From NCBI RefSeq assembly GCF_036010665.1, contig NZ_CP108581.1, positions 5,637,501-5,701,500 of the forward strand: 64,000 nt of DNA, read 5' to 3'. A model generated the notes under the pieces. It did no database searches, was not told the origin of the DNA, and saw only the letters and a program-made list of their open reading frames with translations. Below, in pieces: positions 56,915 through 64,000 of this stretch. Source of the stretch: Microbispora sp. NBC_01189. Its GTDB lineage: Bacteria > Actinomycetota > Actinomycetes > Streptosporangiales > Streptosporangiaceae. Position numbers and translations under genes: made by a program. Position 1 is the stretch's first letter. The number at the start of each line of letters is the position of its first letter.

Positions 56915-57880
56915 TTACTGCCCTCGTGATGAGGCGCGGGCGGCGCGGGCGGCCAGCGCACGCAGATACGCGCGCAGCTCGGGAGGCTCGTGTACCTCGA
57001 ACTCGCAGCCGAGCATGAGCAGACGCGACGCGAGCCACTCCAGGGTGTCGGCCGGTCCGCGTACGCGGCAGCTGTGGTCGTCCACCGGCTCGACGCTCCC
57101 CGCGGCGGCGCCGAGCCGGCGTGCCGCCTGACCGGCCGGAAGGCGCAGGGTCGCCACCACCTCGTAAACGGGTGCGGACGAGTACAGCTTGGCGGCGACG
57201 AACTCGGCCGGGTCCTGTTCCGGTGGCACGCGGGCCGGGAACCGTACGCCGGTCGGGTGAGGGTCGCCGATGCGGTCGGCGCGGAAGATCCGCCAGTCGT
57301 CGCGGTCGTCGTCGAACGCCAGCAGATACCACCGGCGTGCGGCCGCGACCAGGCGGTACGGCTCGGTCAGGCGCCTGGTCTCGGCGCCGTCGCCGGACCG
57401 GTAGGCGAAGCGCAGCCGCTCGCGGTTGGCGACGGCTCCGGCGAGCACCACCAGGGTCCGCGGGTCCACGGGCGGCTCGGCTCCCGCGAGCATCGGCACC
57501 GTCGCGGTGGCGAGTGCGCCCACCCGGCGCCGCAGCCGGGAGGGCAGCACCTGCTCCAGCTTGGCCAGGGCGCGCACGGACGCCTCGTCGATGCCCTCCA
57601 CCGGATGCGCGGCGGCCGTGCGCAGGCCTACGGCGATGGCCACCGCCTCCTCGTCGTCCAGCAGCAGCGGCGGCATGGCGGCACCCGCGGCGAGCCGGTA
57701 GCCGCCCACCGCGCCCATCGTCGCCTGGACCGGATATCCCAGCTCGCGTAGGCGGTCGACGTCGCGGCGTATGGTCCGTGGGCTGACTCCCAGACGCCCG
57801 GCCAGTTCGCTCCCCGGCCACTCGCGGGGCGTCTGCAGCAGCGACAGCAGAGTGAGCAACCGCGCGGACATGTCACTCAT
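56915..57880 (-). CDS. WYL-domain transcriptional regulator (YafY-like)
   Basis: A 321-aa DeoR-type regulator: N-terminal helix-turn-helix (WPGSELAGRLGVSPRTIRRD, about residues 21-40), a middle region (DEEAVAIAVGLRTAA) and a WYL domain with VAAARRWYLLAFDDDRDDWR, where small ligands or oligonucleotides are thought to bind. ATG 57880 is preferred over 57892. It is divergent from the epoxide hydrolase with an AGGTC-AC-GACCT dyad between them, so it probably controls that gene. Confidence 0.9.
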   Translation of the reverse strand: MSDMSARLLTLLSLLQTPREWPGSELAGRLGVSPRTIRRDVDRLRELGYPVQATMGAVGGYRLAAGAAMPPLLLDDEEAVAIAVGLRTAAAHPVEGIDEASVRALAKLEQVLPSRLRRRVGALATATVPMLAGAEPPVDPRTLVVLAGAVANRERLRFAYRSGDGAETRRLTEPYRLVAAARRWYLLAFDDDRDDWRIFRADRIGDPHPTGVRFPARVPPEQDPAEFVAAKLYSSAPVYEVVATLRLPAGQAARRLGAAAGSVEPVDDHSCRVRGPADTLEWLASRLLMLGCEFEVHEPPELRAYLRALAARAARASSRGQ

Positions 57881-57909
57881 GGCACCAAGCATGCCCGGTC
57901 ATCTAGGAC

Positions 57910-57921
57910 AGGTCACGACCT
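57910..57921. promoter_or_regulatory. Dyad between the WYL regulator and epoxide hydrolase genes
   Basis: AGGTC-AC-GACCT is a perfect 5-bp dyad. A TAGCGT (57932-57937) lies downstream of it and may be the -10 of the epoxide hydrolase gene. Likely the regulator's operator. Confidence 0.5.
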
Positions 57922-57968
57922 ACATGCGCCCTAGCGTCGATCCGTCATCGCGACGCATCGGGAGAGAC

Positions 57969-59102
57969 ATGAGCACAGAGATTCGCCCATTTCGTATTGA
58001 GATCGCTTCGGCCGACCTGGACGACCTGAACGACAGGCTGGACCGCGCCCGGTGGCCTCGTGAGCTGCCCGGCGACGGATGGAGCCGCGGCGTCCCCGCC
58101 GCCCTCCTCCGGGAGCTCGCCCGCTACTGGCGCCAGGAGTACGACTGGCGCCGGCACGAGGCGCGGCTGAACGAGTTCCCGCAGTTCATGACCGAGATCG
58201 ACGGCCAGGACATCCACTTCCTGCACATACGATCGGCCGAGCCCGGCGCTCTGCCGCTCGTCCTCACGCACGGCTGGCCGAACTCGTTCCTGGAGTTCAC
58301 CGAGCTCATCGGCCGTCTCGCCGACCCCCGTGCGTACGGCGGCGACCCGGCCCTGGCGTTCCACGTCGTGGCGCCCTCCCTGCCGGGCTTCGGCTTCTCC
58401 GCGCCGCCGCGCGGCACCGGCTGGACCGCGGCGCGCGTGGCGCGGACCTGGGCGGAGCTGATGCGTCGTCTCGGCTATGAGCGGTACGGCGCGCAGGGCG
58501 GGGATTTCGGGGCCTACGTCGCCCCGGAGGTGGCCAAAGCGGCGCCGGACCACGTGGCCGGCGTCTACGTCGTCAGCGGTCTCGGCTTCCCCACGGAGAA
58601 GGACCTTCCGGAGATGACCGAGGACGAGCGGACGGCCTATGCCCGGCTGATGAAACAGGACTGGATGCACGGCGTCGACCACCACGCGCTGCTGCGCGCG
58701 GCGCCGCAGACCTTCACGTACGGGTGGCACGACTCACCGCTCGCGGCGCTGGCCTGGATGACCCAGAAGTTCCAGGAGTTCAACGCCTCCGGCAGGCCAC
58801 TCGAGGAGGTCGTCGACCGGGACCTGTTCCTGACCAACGTCAGCCTCTACTGGTTCACGGGGACGTTCGGGACGTCGGCCTGGCCCTACTACGAGAGCAC
58901 CGGCTCCGGCTGGCCGGAGGGCCAGACCGTCGCGCCGACCGGTGTGTACAGCGGACCGCCCGGCATCCGCCGGCTCGCCGAGCGGCACAACATCGTCCTT
59001 CACTGGCCGGAGGACAACCCGGGCGGCCACCACTTCATCGCGATGGACCAGCCGGATCACCTCGCGGCCGACATCCGCGCGTTCTTCGCCAGGGTGGGCT
59101 GA
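57969..59102 (+). CDS. Epoxide hydrolase, alpha/beta-fold
   Basis: A 377-aa protein with the N-terminal EHN domain (FRIEIASADLDDLNDRLDRA, WRRHEARLNEFPQF) and an alpha/beta hydrolase core: HGWPNSF oxyanion region, nucleophile Asp in AQGGDFGAY, and the late His in NPGGHHFIAMDQP. This is the microsomal-type epoxide hydrolase family. ATG 57969 with GGGAGAG upstream. Probably detoxification, controlled by the divergent WYL regulator. Confidence 0.92.
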   Translation: MSTEIRPFRIEIASADLDDLNDRLDRARWPRELPGDGWSRGVPAALLRELARYWRQEYDWRRHEARLNEFPQFMTEIDGQDIHFLHIRSAEPGALPLVLTHGWPNSFLEFTELIGRLADPRAYGGDPALAFHVVAPSLPGFGFSAPPRGTGWTAARVARTWAELMRRLGYERYGAQGGDFGAYVAPEVAKAAPDHVAGVYVVSGLGFPTEKDLPEMTEDERTAYARLMKQDWMHGVDHHALLRAAPQTFTYGWHDSPLAALAWMTQKFQEFNASGRPLEEVVDRDLFLTNVSLYWFTGTFGTSAWPYYESTGSGWPEGQTVAPTGVYSGPPGIRRLAERHNIVLHWPEDNPGGHHFIAMDQPDHLAADIRAFFARVG

Positions 59103-59224: not shown

Positions 59225-59815
59225 TCAGCTCGCGCCCGGGACGGTGACGTTCCGCTCCTTGAACGGGTAACCGGTCTTCGCGGCGTCGCTCTGCAGCCCG
59301 CTCATCGAGCGCTGGCCGGCGGTCAGGTCGGCCTCCGACGCCGTGCCGCTCTTGAGCCTGTCAGTGAGAGCCCTGACCTTGGTGTCGACGCCCTCGACAG
59401 CCCTGCAGAGCGTGGGGTTGGCCACGGCGAAGCCCTTGGCGACCCTCAGTTCGTGCAGCGCGAACAGGCCCGCCACCGCGGCCTTGGCGAACGTCCGCTT
59501 GCGCTTCTCCGCTCCCTGCTGGAAACCGCCACTGCGCAGCGGTTTGTAGATGTAGCGGTGGAAGGCGCCGAGGGCGAGGCCCGCGTGCAGCGCGAAGCGC
59601 GTCTTGGCGAGCCGCCTGGCGTTGCCGGCCTGCGGGCATGGCGAGTCGTACTCGCTCTCCGTCGCGGACGGCGTGGCGACCACCGCCGGGCCGGCGGCGG
59701 CCGCGTCTCCGGACGCCACGTCGGTGGTCGTGCGTCCGCAGCCGGTGAGCAGCGCCAGCGTCAGTGTGACCGCGGCCGTGAGCGCGGTAAGGGATCGGGC
59801 ATGTCGTGCGGCCAT
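59225..59815 (-). CDS. Putative lipoprotein of unknown function
   Basis: A 196-aa protein with a signal peptide and lipobox (ALLTGCGRT, Cys about residue 24). The mature part has a Thr/Ala linker, then a helical basic core (RRLAKTRFALHAGLALGAFH, RYIYKPLRSGGFQQGAEKRK) ending in FKERNVTVPGAS. I recall similar unnamed actinomycete proteins but no function. ATG 59815 with GGGGG upstream is chosen. It is divergent from the secreted Cys-rich peptide gene. Confidence 0.8.
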   Translation of the reverse strand: MAARHARSLTALTAAVTLTLALLTGCGRTTTDVASGDAAAAGPAVVATPSATESEYDSPCPQAGNARRLAKTRFALHAGLALGAFHRYIYKPLRSGGFQQGAEKRKRTFAKAAVAGLFALHELRVAKGFAVANPTLCRAVEGVDTKVRALTDRLKSGTASEADLTAGQRSMSGLQSDAAKTGYPFKERNVTVPGAS

Positions 59816-60000: not shown

Positions 60001-60217
60001 CATCGGGCCAGGAGAATGGCAGGAACCGGTCATCACCGATCGATTCACCAGGGCTCTCGGCCGATCCCCGTCGATGGGGATATAGAGACTCGTGATGAAT
60101 TCACCCCGGATTATCACCGGTGTCGGCCGTCGGTCTGGACGCGCTCGGGAGCCGATCCGGACTATGGGAGAGGAACACCCGAATCCACGCGTGACGTGAT
60201 CGGAGAGGAGAACGGCC

Positions 60218-60457
60218 ATGCGAGGTAGGCGACTCGGCATGACCATCGGCTCAGCGCTGCTCACCACGGTCGCGCTCTGGCCGGCGGCGGGAGCCCCGGC
60301 GCAGGCGTCCGCGATCTCCGGTGGCGCGGTCGTCGCGCAGACGGCTCCCGGCGCGTCCGTCGCGAAACCGAAGCCGCCCAAGTGCACCAACCGGTGCACG
60401 AACCACCGCAAGTTCAGGTGCTGTCCGAAGTGCAAGCGCGTGCCGGGCAAATGTTAG
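60218..60457 (+). CDS. Small secreted cysteine-rich peptide
   Basis: A 79-aa precursor. The signal peptide (MRGRRLGMTIGSALLTTVAL then a hydrophobic stretch ending AQASA) is followed by an Ala/Val/Gly pro-region and a basic 26-residue tail from PPKC with six Cys: C-x3-C-x7-C-C-x2-C-x6-C. The CC pair and spacing resemble disulfide-rich defensin or knottin-like peptides, though I do not recognise the family. Third-position GC is high, so it is a real gene. ATG 60218 with GGAGAGGAGA upstream. Antimicrobial, signalling or metal-binding roles are all open. Confidence 0.75.
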   Translation: MRGRRLGMTIGSALLTTVALWPAAGAPAQASAISGGAVVAQTAPGASVAKPKPPKCTNRCTNHRKFRCCPKCKRVPGKC

Positions 60458-60556
60458 CCGCCGATCGACCCGGAACGCGGAGGCGGCCGACGGCGTAGCG
60501 GGCGGCCTTCCGGCAGAGCCGCTCCGGGCATTCCCGCGTTCGCCTGAGACCGCCCG

Positions 60557-60592
60557 GATGTGACCGGCGCGCACTTTGCGGCCGGTCACATC
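60557..60592. terminator. Long perfect hairpin after the Cys-rich peptide gene
   Basis: GATGTGACCGGC pairs exactly with GCCGGTCACATC, and inside it CGCA pairs with TGCG around CTT with one bulged G. It separates the peptide gene from the convergent transporter. No T-run. Confidence 0.65.
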
Positions 60593-60638
60593 CCGGTCAC
60601 CTCCCTCTCGTACCGGCTTCCGCGGAGCAGCGCCTTGG

Positions 60639-62388
60639 TCAGGACCGGCGGGCCTGCCGTACGCCGCCGGGACCCACCGGCCCGGCCTTCGCATCGATCC
60701 GATGATGCGGATGAATCCTGCTGGTGAGCAGGGCGAGCGGTCGCGGTGGGAGCGCGAGGGCGCCTACCCCGGCAACGAGCCAGGACGTGGCAGCGATCCA
60801 TGACATCGCGTTGTCGTAGACCTGGAACTGCCACGCCCACGAGTGGGGATGGCCCGCGCCGTCCGCGCCCCAGAAAGCGACGATGATGAACCCCGCTACC
60901 GGCAGGACCCAGGAGGAGGCCCTGCCGAAGACGCGGCCGGACACCAGGGCGAGCCCGGCATAGAGCATCAGGTTCCGTATCGCCTCTGCCGCACCTCCGG
61001 GTGACCCGGTGATCGCTGTGGCAGTGCCGAGGAGGACTGCGGCGAGCAGCAGCGACGTGGCTGTGTGCAGTAGCTCGGCCCTGATCAGCCGTCGCGTCGC
61101 CGCCTGCTCCAGGGACGCCATCGAGCTGTGCAGGCTGCCGGCGGCGAATGCGGCGAACGGGATGGGGGTCGCGGTCGTGCTCGCCATCTCCGACCACCCT
61201 CGACTGTTCGCCGCGGGCAGGACGATGTCGCTGCTGCCCGCCCAACAGGCGACGACCGTCGCCGCCGCACAGCCGATCAGCAACTGTGGAAGGTGGTGCA
61301 CCTGGGAATAGCGCCGGATGTTCCTCGTGGAAGAAACGATCTTCCTCGCCCGGCGGCACGTCGCAGTCAGGCTCCGTCCGTGCGCCAACCGCTGACGACA
61401 GGAAGAAGGGCACAGAAACGGCGCCGTCGAGGAGCTGGAAATCCGTTCCCGCCTCCGGAAGCGACGGGTCGCGCAGTCCGTGCTCGTAGAAGGTGTCGGG
61501 GAACTTGAGCACGCCACCCGGCAGTTCTGCCAGCCGGGCCACCATCGCGTTGATCGGTTCGAGGAACTTCCGGTTCTCCGGCCATACGCACACACGTGGA
61601 GACGCGTCGGAGCAAAGAGGATGGGCCGGAGCCGGACGGGAGACCTGAAGCGGGCCCGCTGCGAACATCGCGCTGATACCGGCGACGACAAGAGCGGCCG
61701 CGGTTGTTCCGATCGGAGTGACTTTTCGTGTCGCTCCGGCGTCATGGACGACCCGCCGTGGAGGTAGCGCCACTGCCAGAACTGTCAGGAACAGCGCGAA
61801 GGTGAACCGAATGAGGATCGCAGGCGCTGAAAGCTCCACTTCCGCGTGCCCAGAGAGCGTGTAGAAGCGGATGGGCCGCAACATGATCTGCCCGAACAGG
61901 CATACCGCGACCGCGATGGGTGGAATGAACCGGGACTGCCACAGCTTACCCGCCAGGTGACCGACGCTCACGCTCAGTGCTATCAGGCTCGCGCCGAGGA
62001 GGAGGTAGGACGGCCAGAGGAACCCTGGTCCCGCGTCCGCCACGCTCACGACGAACGCGAGCAGCACGCCGGGGATGTACGAGATCAGTCCGAAGATCAG
62101 GGAACTTGTCCATATCGGCAGTTCGATCCGCCACCGGGGCTGCATGGCGGCGGCGAGCTGTTCGCCCGTACCCGCTCGGTGCACCCGCCCCGCCGCCCAC
62201 GCGGCGCCACCACCGAGGACGATTCCGAAGAAGTAGGCGGGGAGCTGGGCCGCCGCGCTCGCCTCCGGCCAGACCCCGATCCACCAGGTGCCGCGGCCGA
62301 ACAGCATGGCCAGATCCAGCGTGACGAGCACCGGCAGCAACCATCGCAGCGGAGAACGACGCAACTCCAGCGACAGCACGCGCTTCAC
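60639..62388 (-). pseudogene. ABC-type membrane protein with a frameshift
   Basis: The N-terminal two-thirds read in one frame from GTG 62388 (VKRVLSLELRRSPLRWLLPV, six or so helices such as LPAYFFGIVLGGGAAWAAG and ALFLTVLAVALPP, then a Cys-bearing outer domain with HPLCSDASPRVCVWPENRKF). Near 61310-61325 the hydrophobic pattern jumps to another frame, which continues YSQVHHLPQLLIGCAAATVV through further helices (AELLHTATSLLLAAVLLGTA, VLPVAGFIIVAFWGADGAG) to 60639. The total length is one base over a multiple of three. It pairs with the ATPase upstream (4-bp overlap). Decay or a sequencing error are both possible. Confidence 0.75.
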
Positions 62389-63077
62389 GCCGGCACCTCC
62401 AGCCCGGCGAGGAGGCTCATGTATCCACGTTCCAGCGGGGTGTCTCCCTCTGAACCGGGACGGGCGGCGGCGGCCAGACTCTCCGGATCCCCCTGCCAGA
62501 CCAGCCGTCCCTCCGCCATCACCACAATGTCGTCACAGACCGCCGCGGCATCCTCGACCAGGTGAGTGCTGAGCACGACCGCGGTGCCGGACTCCCGGAG
62601 CTTCCGTATGACAGCGCGGAACTCCAGTCGCTGCGCGGGATCGAGGCCCACGGTCGGCTCGTCCAACAGCACCAGCCTCGGCTGACCCACGATCGCCGAG
62701 GCGATCCCGCATCGGCGGATCATTCCTCCGGACAGCGACTTCATCTTGGCGTCCGACCGTTCGGAAAGATCGACGAAGGCGATGGCCTCGCGTGTCGCGG
62801 TGTCCGCTGTGGAATCCGGAAGGCCGCGAAGCCATCCGGAATAACGGACGAAGTCATAGACCGTAAATGCGGGATAGAACCCAAAATGCTGCGGTAGATA
62901 TCCGATGTGTCGTCGAGCCCGCCGTACCTCTCGCTGCGAGTCCACCTGCACTCCACAGATTCGTACGGCACCACGAGTCGGCGGCACCACGGTCGCCAGC
63001 ATCCGCAGCAGGGTGGTTTTACCAGCGCCATTTGGCCCGAGCAGGCCGAGCACACCCGGTCGTACACCCAGATCCAC
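62385..63077 (-). CDS. ABC transporter ATPase with degenerate 5' end
   Basis: Walker A LLGPNGAGKTTLLRML, Q-loop YLPQHFGFYP, signature SLSGGMIRRCGIA, Walker B LVLLDEPTVGLDP and H-loop STHLVEDAA are all intact, so the core could work. The first usable start, GTG 63077, falls inside the usual N-terminal strand. The frame reads through upstream as RAQKISLSRREVIHD, homologous in pattern to normal N-termini, until TAG, with CTA where a start codon would be expected. So the natural start seems lost. It may be a pseudogene like its partner permease. Confidence 0.75.
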   Translation of the reverse strand: MDLGVRPGVLGLLGPNGAGKTTLLRMLATVVPPTRGAVRICGVQVDSQREVRRARRHIGYLPQHFGFYPAFTVYDFVRYSGWLRGLPDSTADTATREAIAFVDLSERSDAKMKSLSGGMIRRCGIASAIVGQPRLVLLDEPTVGLDPAQRLEFRAVIRKLRESGTAVVLSTHLVEDAAAVCDDIVVMAEGRLVWQGDPESLAAAARPGSEGDTPLERGYMSLLAGLEVPA

Positions 63078-63292
63078 GTCGTGAATGACTTCACGCCTGC
63101 TAAGGGATATCTTCTGCGCCCTTAGCTAGATGGGCCCGGGGGCGAGGAGTAGTCGTTTGCCCCGGCATTGCATGTGTGATCGGCTTCCATATTCCTGGTG
63201 AGGGAACTGCGAATGTGCCGGCCGTCGCGCGCGGGGCCGCGGCCCACGCCCGCGCCGCCGGCCTATGCTGGCCGGCGACGACGGGAGAGCGC

Positions 63293-63571
63293 ATGGCGGT
63301 GCTGATCGACCGGCCGAACTGGCCGGGTCCCCGGGGGCTGCTCTGGTCCCACCTGGTCAGCGACTCGTCACTGTGGGAGCTGCACGCGTTCGCCCGCCTG
63401 CTCGACGTGCCGGAACGCGCCTTCGACCGGGACCACTACGACGTGCCGGAGACGGTCTACGACCGGGCCGTCCTGCTCGGCGCCGAGCCGGTCGGCAGCC
63501 AGGAGCTGGTGCGGCGGTTGCGCGCGTCCGGTCTGCGTCGCCCGAAGGCCCGCAGCAGATCTACATTGTAA
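63293..63571 (+). CDS. DUF4031-domain protein
   Basis: A 92-aa protein beginning MAVLIDRPNWPGPRGLLWSH, followed by LVSDSSLWELHAFARLLDVP and FDRDHYDVPETVYDRAVLLG, as in actinobacterial DUF4031 proteins. Function unknown. ATG 63293 with GGGAGA upstream; TATGCT (63264-63269) is a likely -10. It converges with the HD hydrolase gene; GGCCGCC-TCAGA-GGGCGGCC (63577-63596) may be a shared terminator. Confidence 0.82.
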   Translation: MAVLIDRPNWPGPRGLLWSHLVSDSSLWELHAFARLLDVPERAFDRDHYDVPETVYDRAVLLGAEPVGSQELVRRLRASGLRRPKARSRSTL

Positions 63572-63582
63572 AGGCGGCCGCC

Positions 63583-64000
63583 TCAGAGGGCGGCCAGCTC
63601 CCGGGTCATGTTCGCGCGCGCCCGGTCCTCCCACAGGTCCCGGCCCACGGGAGTGCCGTACAGGCGGGGTTTGCCGAGCAGGGCGCGCAGCACGGCGGCG
63701 CGGCCGGCCCGGAAGGCGTCGTCGGGCACGTGCCGATACTCCTCCCGTACGGCCCTCGCGTACGCCTCGTACGCCTCGGGCGGCGCCCCGAGGATCGCGA
63801 GGTCGGCGTCGCACAGGACGGCCGCGTTCGCGTCGCCGGGCTCGTACGTGTGCCCGGTTGTGAGCCGCACCAGCCGGGCGACCTCGGCGACCCGTTCCGG
63901 GGGCAGACCGCAGGCGGGCAGCCGTGCCTGGGCGAGCTGGGCGCTGTGCTCCTCGTCCCGCCCGGGCCGCCCGTCGTAGACGGCGTCGTGGAACCACGCG
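63583..64000 (-). CDS. HD-domain metal-dependent phosphohydrolase, C-terminal part
   Basis: Runs off the right edge; 139 codons are visible. The visible N-terminal part reads AWFHDAVYDGRPGRDEEHSA, the HD motif of predicted metal-dependent phosphohydrolases, followed by RLTTGHTYEPGDANAAVLCD, with another His/Asp pair, and a helical tail ending MTRELAAL. Substrate unknown. Confidence 0.85.
   Translation of the reverse strand, partial: AWFHDAVYDGRPGRDEEHSAQLAQARLPACGLPPERVAEVARLVRLTTGHTYEPGDANAAVLCDADLAILGAPPEAYEAYARAVREEYRHVPDDAFRAGRAAVLRALLGKPRLYGTPVGRDLWEDRARANMTRELAAL

What the first reader, a model, noticed from the sequence alone, without database searches (positions are those of the whole stretch)
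60218..60457. Secreted six-cysteine mini-protein, possible new peptide family
The precursor has a clear signal peptide and a basic tail with C-x3-C-x7-CC-x2-C-x6-C spacing, unlike bacteriocins I know and reminiscent of knottins or defensins. Codon use marks it as a real gene, with its own strong hairpin terminator. A nearby ABC exporter is decaying, so the peptide probably leaves by Sec/Tat.
Basis: partly seen in the sequence, partly recalled or inferred. Interest (0 to 1): 0.65.

Follow-up and report, generated by a model that had tools for sequence, protein, structure and literature searches.

The report
Secreted six-cysteine peptide of Microbispora
A tiny, strongly positively charged peptide that looks secreted and disulfide-bonded is conserved across a genus of actinobacteria, matches no known protein family searched here, and so marks an apparently undescribed peptide family whose job still has to be found at the bench.

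Summary
ORF 60218-60457 (+) encodes a 79-aa precursor: apparent Sec signal peptide, fast-evolving linker, and a +11 core with C-x3-C-x7-CC-x2-C-x6-C. It is a real gene: 14 of 15 searched genomes of its genus (Microbispora) carry it, 13 at one locus. Six cysteines and one histidine are invariant in 18 sequences. Core dN/dS is 0.11, against 0.83 (signal) and 1.03 (linker). Three genomes of one other genus carry a longer-looped form. No relative was found in Pfam, NCBIfam, PDB sequences, plasmids, phages or viral contigs, nor convincingly in 395 other genomes of the phylum. Corrections: the Tat motif is not conserved; the broken ABC transporter is not shared by relatives; the hairpin lacks a U-tract and its repeat occurs in 4 of 13 orthologues. 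It is not a CSalphabeta defensin (0 of 18). Spacing is knottin-compatible in 14 of 18, but the fold is unproven (AlphaFold pLDDT 55). Best reading: a disulfide-clamped polycation binding anionic envelope polymers. Function is inferred.

The parts
60136..60165 (+). Promoter-like element TGGACG-N18-GACTAT upstream of the peptide gene
   Evidence: TGGACG and GAC[A/T]AT at constant spacing in 13 of 13 syntenic orthologues. The strict sigma-70 consensus scan found nothing here, so the promoter call is inference from conservation.
60202..60210 (+). Ribosome-binding site GGAGAGGAG
   Evidence: Purine-rich stretch 7 bases before ATG; a purine-rich run in the same place in the orthologues.
60218..60457 (+). 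Precursor gene of the six-cysteine peptide, 79 aa plus stop
   Evidence: orthologues in 14 of 15 genomes of the genus, own genome included.
60218..60313 (+). Apparent Sec signal peptide, residues 1-32 (cleavage at ASA|IS by eye)
   Evidence: Basic n-region, hydrophobic core, AxA site in the translation; twin Arg in 3 of 13.
60314..60364 (+). Propeptide or linker, residues 33-49, near-neutral evolution
   Evidence: dN/dS 1.03 over 13 orthologues.
60365..60454 (+). Cationic six-Cys core, residues 50-79, net charge +11, pI about 10
   Evidence: dN/dS 0.11; six Cys and one His invariant in 18 sequences; charge and pI.
60556..60593 (.). Hairpin, 13-bp perfect stem, possible transcription terminator without a U-tract
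   Evidence: z -5.25 for 60530-60610; same inverted repeat after the gene in 4 of 13 orthologues, single copy in those 4 of 15 genomes.
59225..59815 (-). Divergent neighbour: lipoprotein precursor, 196 aa, predicted four-helix domain; next to the peptide gene in 12 of 13 syntenic Microbispora loci
   Evidence: adjacent tail-to-tail in 2 genomes of genus g23.

Best explanation
The gene encodes a preproprotein. The Sec pathway exports it; signal peptidase, and probably a second protease in the unconserved linker, release a core of about 30 residues. Outside the membrane its six cysteines form three disulfides, giving a small, rigid, very basic mini-protein (net +11 in 30 residues, few hydrophobic side chains). 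It most likely works by binding polyanions of a cell envelope (teichoic-acid-like polymers, lipid-linked wall precursors or extracellular nucleic acid) rather than by making membrane pores. Its conservation and stable locus suggest a standing role at the producer's own surface or in constitutive defence rather than a fast-evolving bacteriocin. Shown here: gene, conservation, Cys pattern, charge, selection, synteny. Inferred: export, cleavage, disulfides, target and role.
For: 14 of 15 genus genomes carry it and 13 share the locus. Core dN/dS 0.11 against 0.23-0.34 for four neighbouring genes and 0.57 for the lipoprotein. Cys, one His and the GKC/GRC end are conserved while signal and linker drift. 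Net charge of the core +8 to +12 in 15 members; residues AVILMFWY make up 7-17% and GRAVY is negative in all 18 cores, which argues against an amphipathic pore-former. A promoter-like element is conserved in 13 of 13. No ABC exporter is shared beside it: the window's permease pieces occur in 1 of 18 neighbourhoods; no immunity or modification gene was recognised among the shared neighbours.
Against: No expression, secretion, disulfide or activity data. AlphaFold could not model the peptide (pLDDT 54.6). The low core ratio owes much to high synonymous divergence (dS 0.75 against 0.17-0.26 for four neighbours); core dN (0.083) is a little above that of those neighbours (0.045-0.065). Constraint does not exclude an antibiotic: the same paper that reports positive selection in Actinomyces defensins found none in fungal and animal defensins (PMC8819291). 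The invariant His, and the seventh Cys in the linker of 4 of 18 members, are not explained by a simple three-disulfide clamp. The clade of G001 and G004 lacks the gene at this locus, and G004 lacks it altogether in the searches, so it is not essential to the genus.
Confidence: 0.4

Rival explanations
1. A constitutive antimicrobial or antifungal peptide, working like a cationic defensin (for example by binding a wall precursor) but with its own cysteine framework.
For: Strong positive charge, six Cys, apparent secretion signal; a second, diverged copy in G014 and a relocated one in G001. Actinomyces defensins show that actinobacteria use six-Cys peptides as antibiotics, and fungal and animal defensins in the same study show no positive selection, so constraint is no bar (PMC8819291, section 9 read).
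Against: Actinomyces defensins come as several clustered genes between ABC transporter genes and show positive selection (omega 3.17 at about 20% of sites; PMC8819291); here there is one gene per locus, no shared ABC exporter and a constrained core. No dedicated immunity gene was recognised.
Confidence: 0.3
2. A secreted metal-binding peptide: six Cys plus the invariant His bind zinc or copper at the surface or outside the cell.
For: C-x3-C-x2-H-x4-CC with the His invariant in 18 of 18; extra His residues in the long-loop members.
Against: An exported peptide is expected to be oxidised (general knowledge); the zinc-knuckle spacing C-x2-C-x4-H-x4-C is met by 0 of 18; no metal-transport gene was recognised next to it, but this was not searched systematically.
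Confidence: 0.13
3. A knottin-type enzyme inhibitor (protease, amylase or chitinase).
For: C-C-CC-C-C order; spacing fits a recalled ICK consensus in 14 of 18.
Against: The C4-C5 loop varies from 2 to 8 residues and the four type-B members break the consensus; no confident structure; no match to a solved inhibitor by sequence (one search lists three unrelated chains at E 0.15-2.1, none).
Confidence: 0.08
4. A chance ORF with no product.
For: No transcript or peptide evidence was available.
Against: Conserved in 14 of 15 genomes with a constrained core and conserved upstream elements.
Confidence: 0.02

Closest known systems
Bacterial cis-defensins (CSalphabeta; actinomycesin, xanthusin-1)
   Same: Small, mostly cationic, six cysteines, made as precursors, found in some actinobacteria and myxobacteria (PMC8819291 section 9; PMC11561630 part 1 of the Results and methods section 13).
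   Different: CSalphabeta pattern with terminal C-x-C is met by 0 of 18 members; adjacent CC in the middle instead; one gene per locus, constrained core.
Inhibitor cystine knot peptides (knottins)
   Same: C-C-CC-C-C order, and loop lengths compatible with a recalled consensus in 14 of 18.
   Different: Disulfide pairing unknown; long-loop members break the consensus; no sequence match to solved knottins. The one literature search pairing this order with ICK and bacteria listed six papers, by title and abstract start five on animal peptides and one on ginkgo (of these only PMC10138031 was opened, passages).
Snakin/GASA peptides of plants (recalled)
   Same: A CC-x2-C followed by V, G and C, recalled from memory.
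   Different: None of 15 members matches such a Pfam family at E up to 10 (HMMER's filters drop most matches above 0.1); GASA domains have twelve Cys (recalled), this has six; a typed GASA-like spacing is met by 0 of 18.

Membership tests
Bacterial cis-defensin (CSalphabeta) | Cys pattern CX(2,18)CX(3)CX(2,12)CX(4,17)CXC (PMC11561630) | tested here: not met
   0 of 18 members; pattern read in section 13 of the paper.
Bacterial cis-defensin (CSalphabeta) | CSalphabeta fold (helix and antiparallel sheet) | tested here: inconclusive
   AlphaFold pLDDT 54.6, no secondary structure assigned.
Inhibitor cystine knot (knottin) | Six-Cys spacing of the ICK consensus (recalled: C-x3-7-C-x3-8-C-x0-7-C-x1-4-C-x4-13-C) | tested here: inconclusive
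   Met by 14 of 18, not by the 4 long-loop members; shuffled window cores fit in 218 of 20000.
Inhibitor cystine knot (knottin) | Disulfide pairing 1-4, 2-5, 3-6 with the knot | not testable with these tools
   Needs mass spectrometry or a solved structure; the model was not confident.
Snakin/GASA | Match to the family profile in Pfam | tested here: not met
   0 of 15 members; the only listed family was PHD20L1_u1, 2 members, best E 0.07.
Bacteriocin or RiPP cluster | Dedicated exporter, modification or immunity genes conserved beside the precursor | tested here: not met
   The ABC permease pieces occur in 1 of 18 neighbourhoods; genes shared by the syntenic loci are the lipoprotein (12 of 13), an Ssu-type import cluster, g63176 and the 63583-63999 gene. 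The lipoprotein also occurs in 53 genomes that I do not count as peptide carriers. Only homologues of 12 window genes were compared.
Zinc knuckle (CCHC) | C-x2-C-x4-H-x4-C (recalled) | tested here: not met
   0 of 18.
Tat substrate | Twin arginine in the n-region | tested here: not met
   RR in 3 of 13 syntenic orthologues, the window's copy among the three; GR in the other 10. Not met as a family feature.

The most novel reading that the evidence does not exclude
A bacterial-born inhibitor-cystine-knot family: a secreted C-C-CC-C-C mini-protein, inherited mostly vertically in Microbispora, with a polyanion-binding surface and a role in the producer's envelope or development, possibly in concert with the adjacent four-helix lipoprotein.
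Probability: 0.2. Interest if true: 0.75.

Novelty: new variant of a known kind. Interest (0 to 1): 0.5.

Why it matters
Disulfide-rich secreted mini-proteins are well known from animals, plants and fungi, while the bacterial ones described in the two defensin papers read here are CSalphabeta defensins. A genus-wide, constrained family with another cysteine order would widen that list, give a ready set of natural variants for folding studies, and offer a simple knockout question in an actinobacterial genus. If the oxidised core binds wall precursors it is also an antibiotic lead.

Tried and rejected
Relatives elsewhere: plasmids and phages gave no match; 39 viral-contig stretches fitted the motif but none encoded a relative. 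Two searches drawn across the phylum (396 genomes each, the window genome included) gave only weak rows: with the full profile one other genome at E 6e-4; with the core profile four others at E 0.001-0.007, each covering part of the core. A scan of these five loci and of 30 other weak-match loci (35 in all) for the six-Cys pattern found it in none; one (L141) has C-x3-C-x7-CC without the His or the sixth Cys. Caveat: in the large searches only part of the first-look candidates was scored per genome (for example 14, 16, 20 or 23), so distant relatives can have been missed.

Rows dropped before counting: in the family search 42 of 341 genomes matched at E<=0.001; I count 14 Microbispora and 3 g23 genomes as carriers. 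The other 25 align mainly over signal and linker (most within positions 1-58, the widest 1-74 or 25-77 of 79). Thirteen of these 25 have fetched loci (L036-L048), and none of the 13 shows the six-Cys pattern; none of the 25 matched the core profile at E<=0.01. Ten of the 25 are among the 53 lipoprotein genomes counted as non-carriers. The core search of the order had 19 of 345 genomes; I dropped two (E 0.008 and 0.010, partial).

Fold: AlphaFold on the mature peptide, 18 sequences, gave no confident model; no fold search was run on it. AlphaFold on the lipoprotein gave four confident helices from about residue 70 (mean pLDDT 75.6), but Foldseek had no match at E<=0.001 and the VIA second look listed assorted helical bundles, best Z 12.9, within what that tool calls common for helical proteins. 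It gives no function.

Idea that the lipoprotein is a dedicated immunity protein: judged unlikely, because 67 of 341 family genomes have it and 53 of these are outside the 12 Microbispora and 2 g23 genomes with both genes.

Idea of one inserted cassette (lipoprotein plus peptide): not decided. G001 and G004 form one clade (support 1.00, unrooted tree of 15 genomes) and both lack both genes at the native locus, which fits one loss or one later gain.

Literature: eight searches (two of them found no paper) brought no report of this peptide in the titles and abstract starts listed; two searches listed 15 of 35 and 12 of 34. Papers opened: PMC8819291 (passages, section 9), PMC11561630 (outline with abstract, part 1 of the Results, section 13), PMC13352647 and PMC10138031 (passages, nothing used).

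Full report
What is there. The ORF at 60218-60457 (+) is exact and encodes 79 residues. Residues 1-32 read as a Sec signal peptide (basic start, hydrophobic stretch, ASA before the presumed cut; my reading, no predictor was run). Residues 33-49 are a linker and 50-79 the core KPKPPKCTNRCTNHRKFRCCPKCKRVPGKC, net charge +11, pI about 10. A purine-rich ribosome-binding site precedes the ATG.

Is it a gene. The window lies in genome G000. Two close matches in named records are Microbispora amethystogenes (99%) and M. triticiradicis (86%), and their contig lengths equal those of contigs in G011 and G009, two genomes of the same genus; hence the genus name, by inference. The peptide is in 14 of 15 genomes of the genus, the window genome included, both by single sequence and by profile (the profile was built from these hits); G004 is the miss. 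In 13 of the 14 it lies between an Ssu-type import cluster and two genes (g63176 and the one at 63583-63999), that is, at one locus (18 neighbourhoods compared, fetched). In G001 the peptide lies elsewhere, and the native locus of both G001 and G004 joins ssuC to g63176 without peptide or lipoprotein. Those two genomes form one clade (unrooted).

Selection. Over 13 syntenic orthologues the Nei-Gojobori ratio is 0.83 for the signal, 1.03 for the linker and 0.11 for the core. Four neighbouring genes give 0.23-0.34 and the lipoprotein 0.57. The low core ratio owes much to high synonymous divergence in the core (dS 0.75 against 0.17-0.26 in the four neighbours); core dN, 0.083, is slightly above their 0.045-0.065. 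So the core is held about as firmly as an ordinary conserved protein while the rest of the precursor drifts. Why the core's synonymous sites diverge so much is unexplained.

The family. In an alignment of 18 mature sequences (13 syntenic, the G001 copy, three of genus g23, and a second copy in G014) the six cysteines, one histidine, one proline and one glycine are invariant. Type A (14 sequences) has 2-4 residues between CC and the fifth cysteine; type B (the three g23 sequences and the second G014 copy) has 8. Four of 18 have a seventh cysteine in the linker, which fits either removal of the linker or a dimer. The copy in G233 has its signal peptide out of frame and may be decayed or mis-sequenced. 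Beyond these genomes nothing convincing was found: Pfam, NCBIfam, PDB sequences (one search lists three unrelated chains at E 0.15-2.1; none), plasmids and phages, viral contigs, and 395 other genomes drawn across the phylum (weak rows told under Tried and rejected, loci scanned). PHROGs gave three weak rows, best E 0.083.

Surroundings. The divergent neighbour 59225-59815 (-) is a lipoprotein (LLTGC lipobox, my reading) of a broad family without a Pfam match near a cut-off (weak DUF4179 rows in 19 of 28 members, best E 0.0026): 67 of 341 genomes of the taxonomic family have it, and the model has four helices without an informative structural match. It lies next to the peptide in 12 of 13 syntenic loci, head to head, and in two g23 genomes tail to tail. 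Repeated adjacency in two arrangements hints at a link, but 53 genomes with the lipoprotein are not counted as peptide carriers. The pieces of the broken ABC permease occur in none of the 17 other neighbourhoods, and the ATPase matches there only at 30-35% identity, so this transporter says nothing about how the peptide leaves the cell. The twin arginine is present in 3 of 13, so Sec is the likely route. Upstream, TGGACG and GAC[A/T]AT keep a fixed spacing in 13 of 13, a plausible promoter although the strict scan did not score it. Downstream, the hairpin at 60556-60593 is strong but lacks a U-tract; its inverted repeat follows the gene in 4 of 13 orthologues and is single-copy in those genomes. 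By the coordinates those four are the loci with over 1 kb between the peptide gene and g63176; in the other nine the gap is under 0.4 kb.

What it resembles. No member fits the pattern used to mine bacterial cis-defensins (0 of 18; pattern from PMC11561630). Actinomyces defensins come as several genes between ABC transporter genes and show positive selection, whereas fungal and animal defensins in that study do not (PMC8819291, section 9 read). So constraint separates this family from the Actinomyces case but does not rule out an antibiotic. The C-C-CC-C-C order and loops fit a recalled knottin consensus in 14 of 18; shuffles of the window core fit it in 218 of 20000, so the fit is not trivial but it proves no knot. 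AlphaFold did not model the peptide with confidence.

How it probably works. Shown: gene, conservation, pattern, charge, selection. Inferred: Sec export, cleavage, three disulfides, and electrostatic binding to anionic envelope polymers. The scarcity of hydrophobic residues (7-17%) speaks against pore formation. Constraint, stable locus and lack of a shared exporter or a recognised immunity gene speak for a standing role over an arms-race bacteriocin; a constitutive antimicrobial is the main rival, metal binding the next.

Verdict. A real and, as far as these searches reach (databases above; literature listings), undescribed family of a known broad kind (secreted Cys-rich mini-proteins) with an unusual framework for bacteria.

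Noticed in passing
60586-63077 (-): ABC permease in two overlapping frames plus an ATPase, reading as a broken transporter; permease pieces not found in 17 other neighbourhoods, so an insertion not shared by the relatives compared.
   Followed up: partly
59225-59815 (-): Lipoprotein family with two conserved cysteines after the lipobox and a predicted four-helix domain, present in 67 of 341 genomes of the family.
   Followed up: partly
60218-60232: CGA at codons 2 and 5 is the same in all 13 syntenic orthologues, and GGT at codon 3 in 12, though third positions are mostly G or C; synonymous sites in the signal part are far less diverged than in the core.
   Followed up: no
60556-60593: Inverted repeat TGTGACCGGC...GCCGGTCACA is single-copy in 4 of 15 genomes of the genus and sits just after this gene in each; the outer stem differs between genomes with pairing kept.
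   Followed up: partly
56915-59102: WYL-type regulator (by eye) and epoxide hydrolase (Pfam) present in only part of the syntenic loci, another sign of a variable spot.
   Followed up: no
L011:1501-1734: The G006 orthologue has a TTA leucine codon in its signal peptide, the codon that in Streptomyces depends on bldA (recalled).
   Followed up: no
63176-63571 (+): Small conserved gene downstream of the peptide in the syntenic loci, with a weak match to phrog_4887 of unknown function (E 1.9e-4).
   Followed up: no
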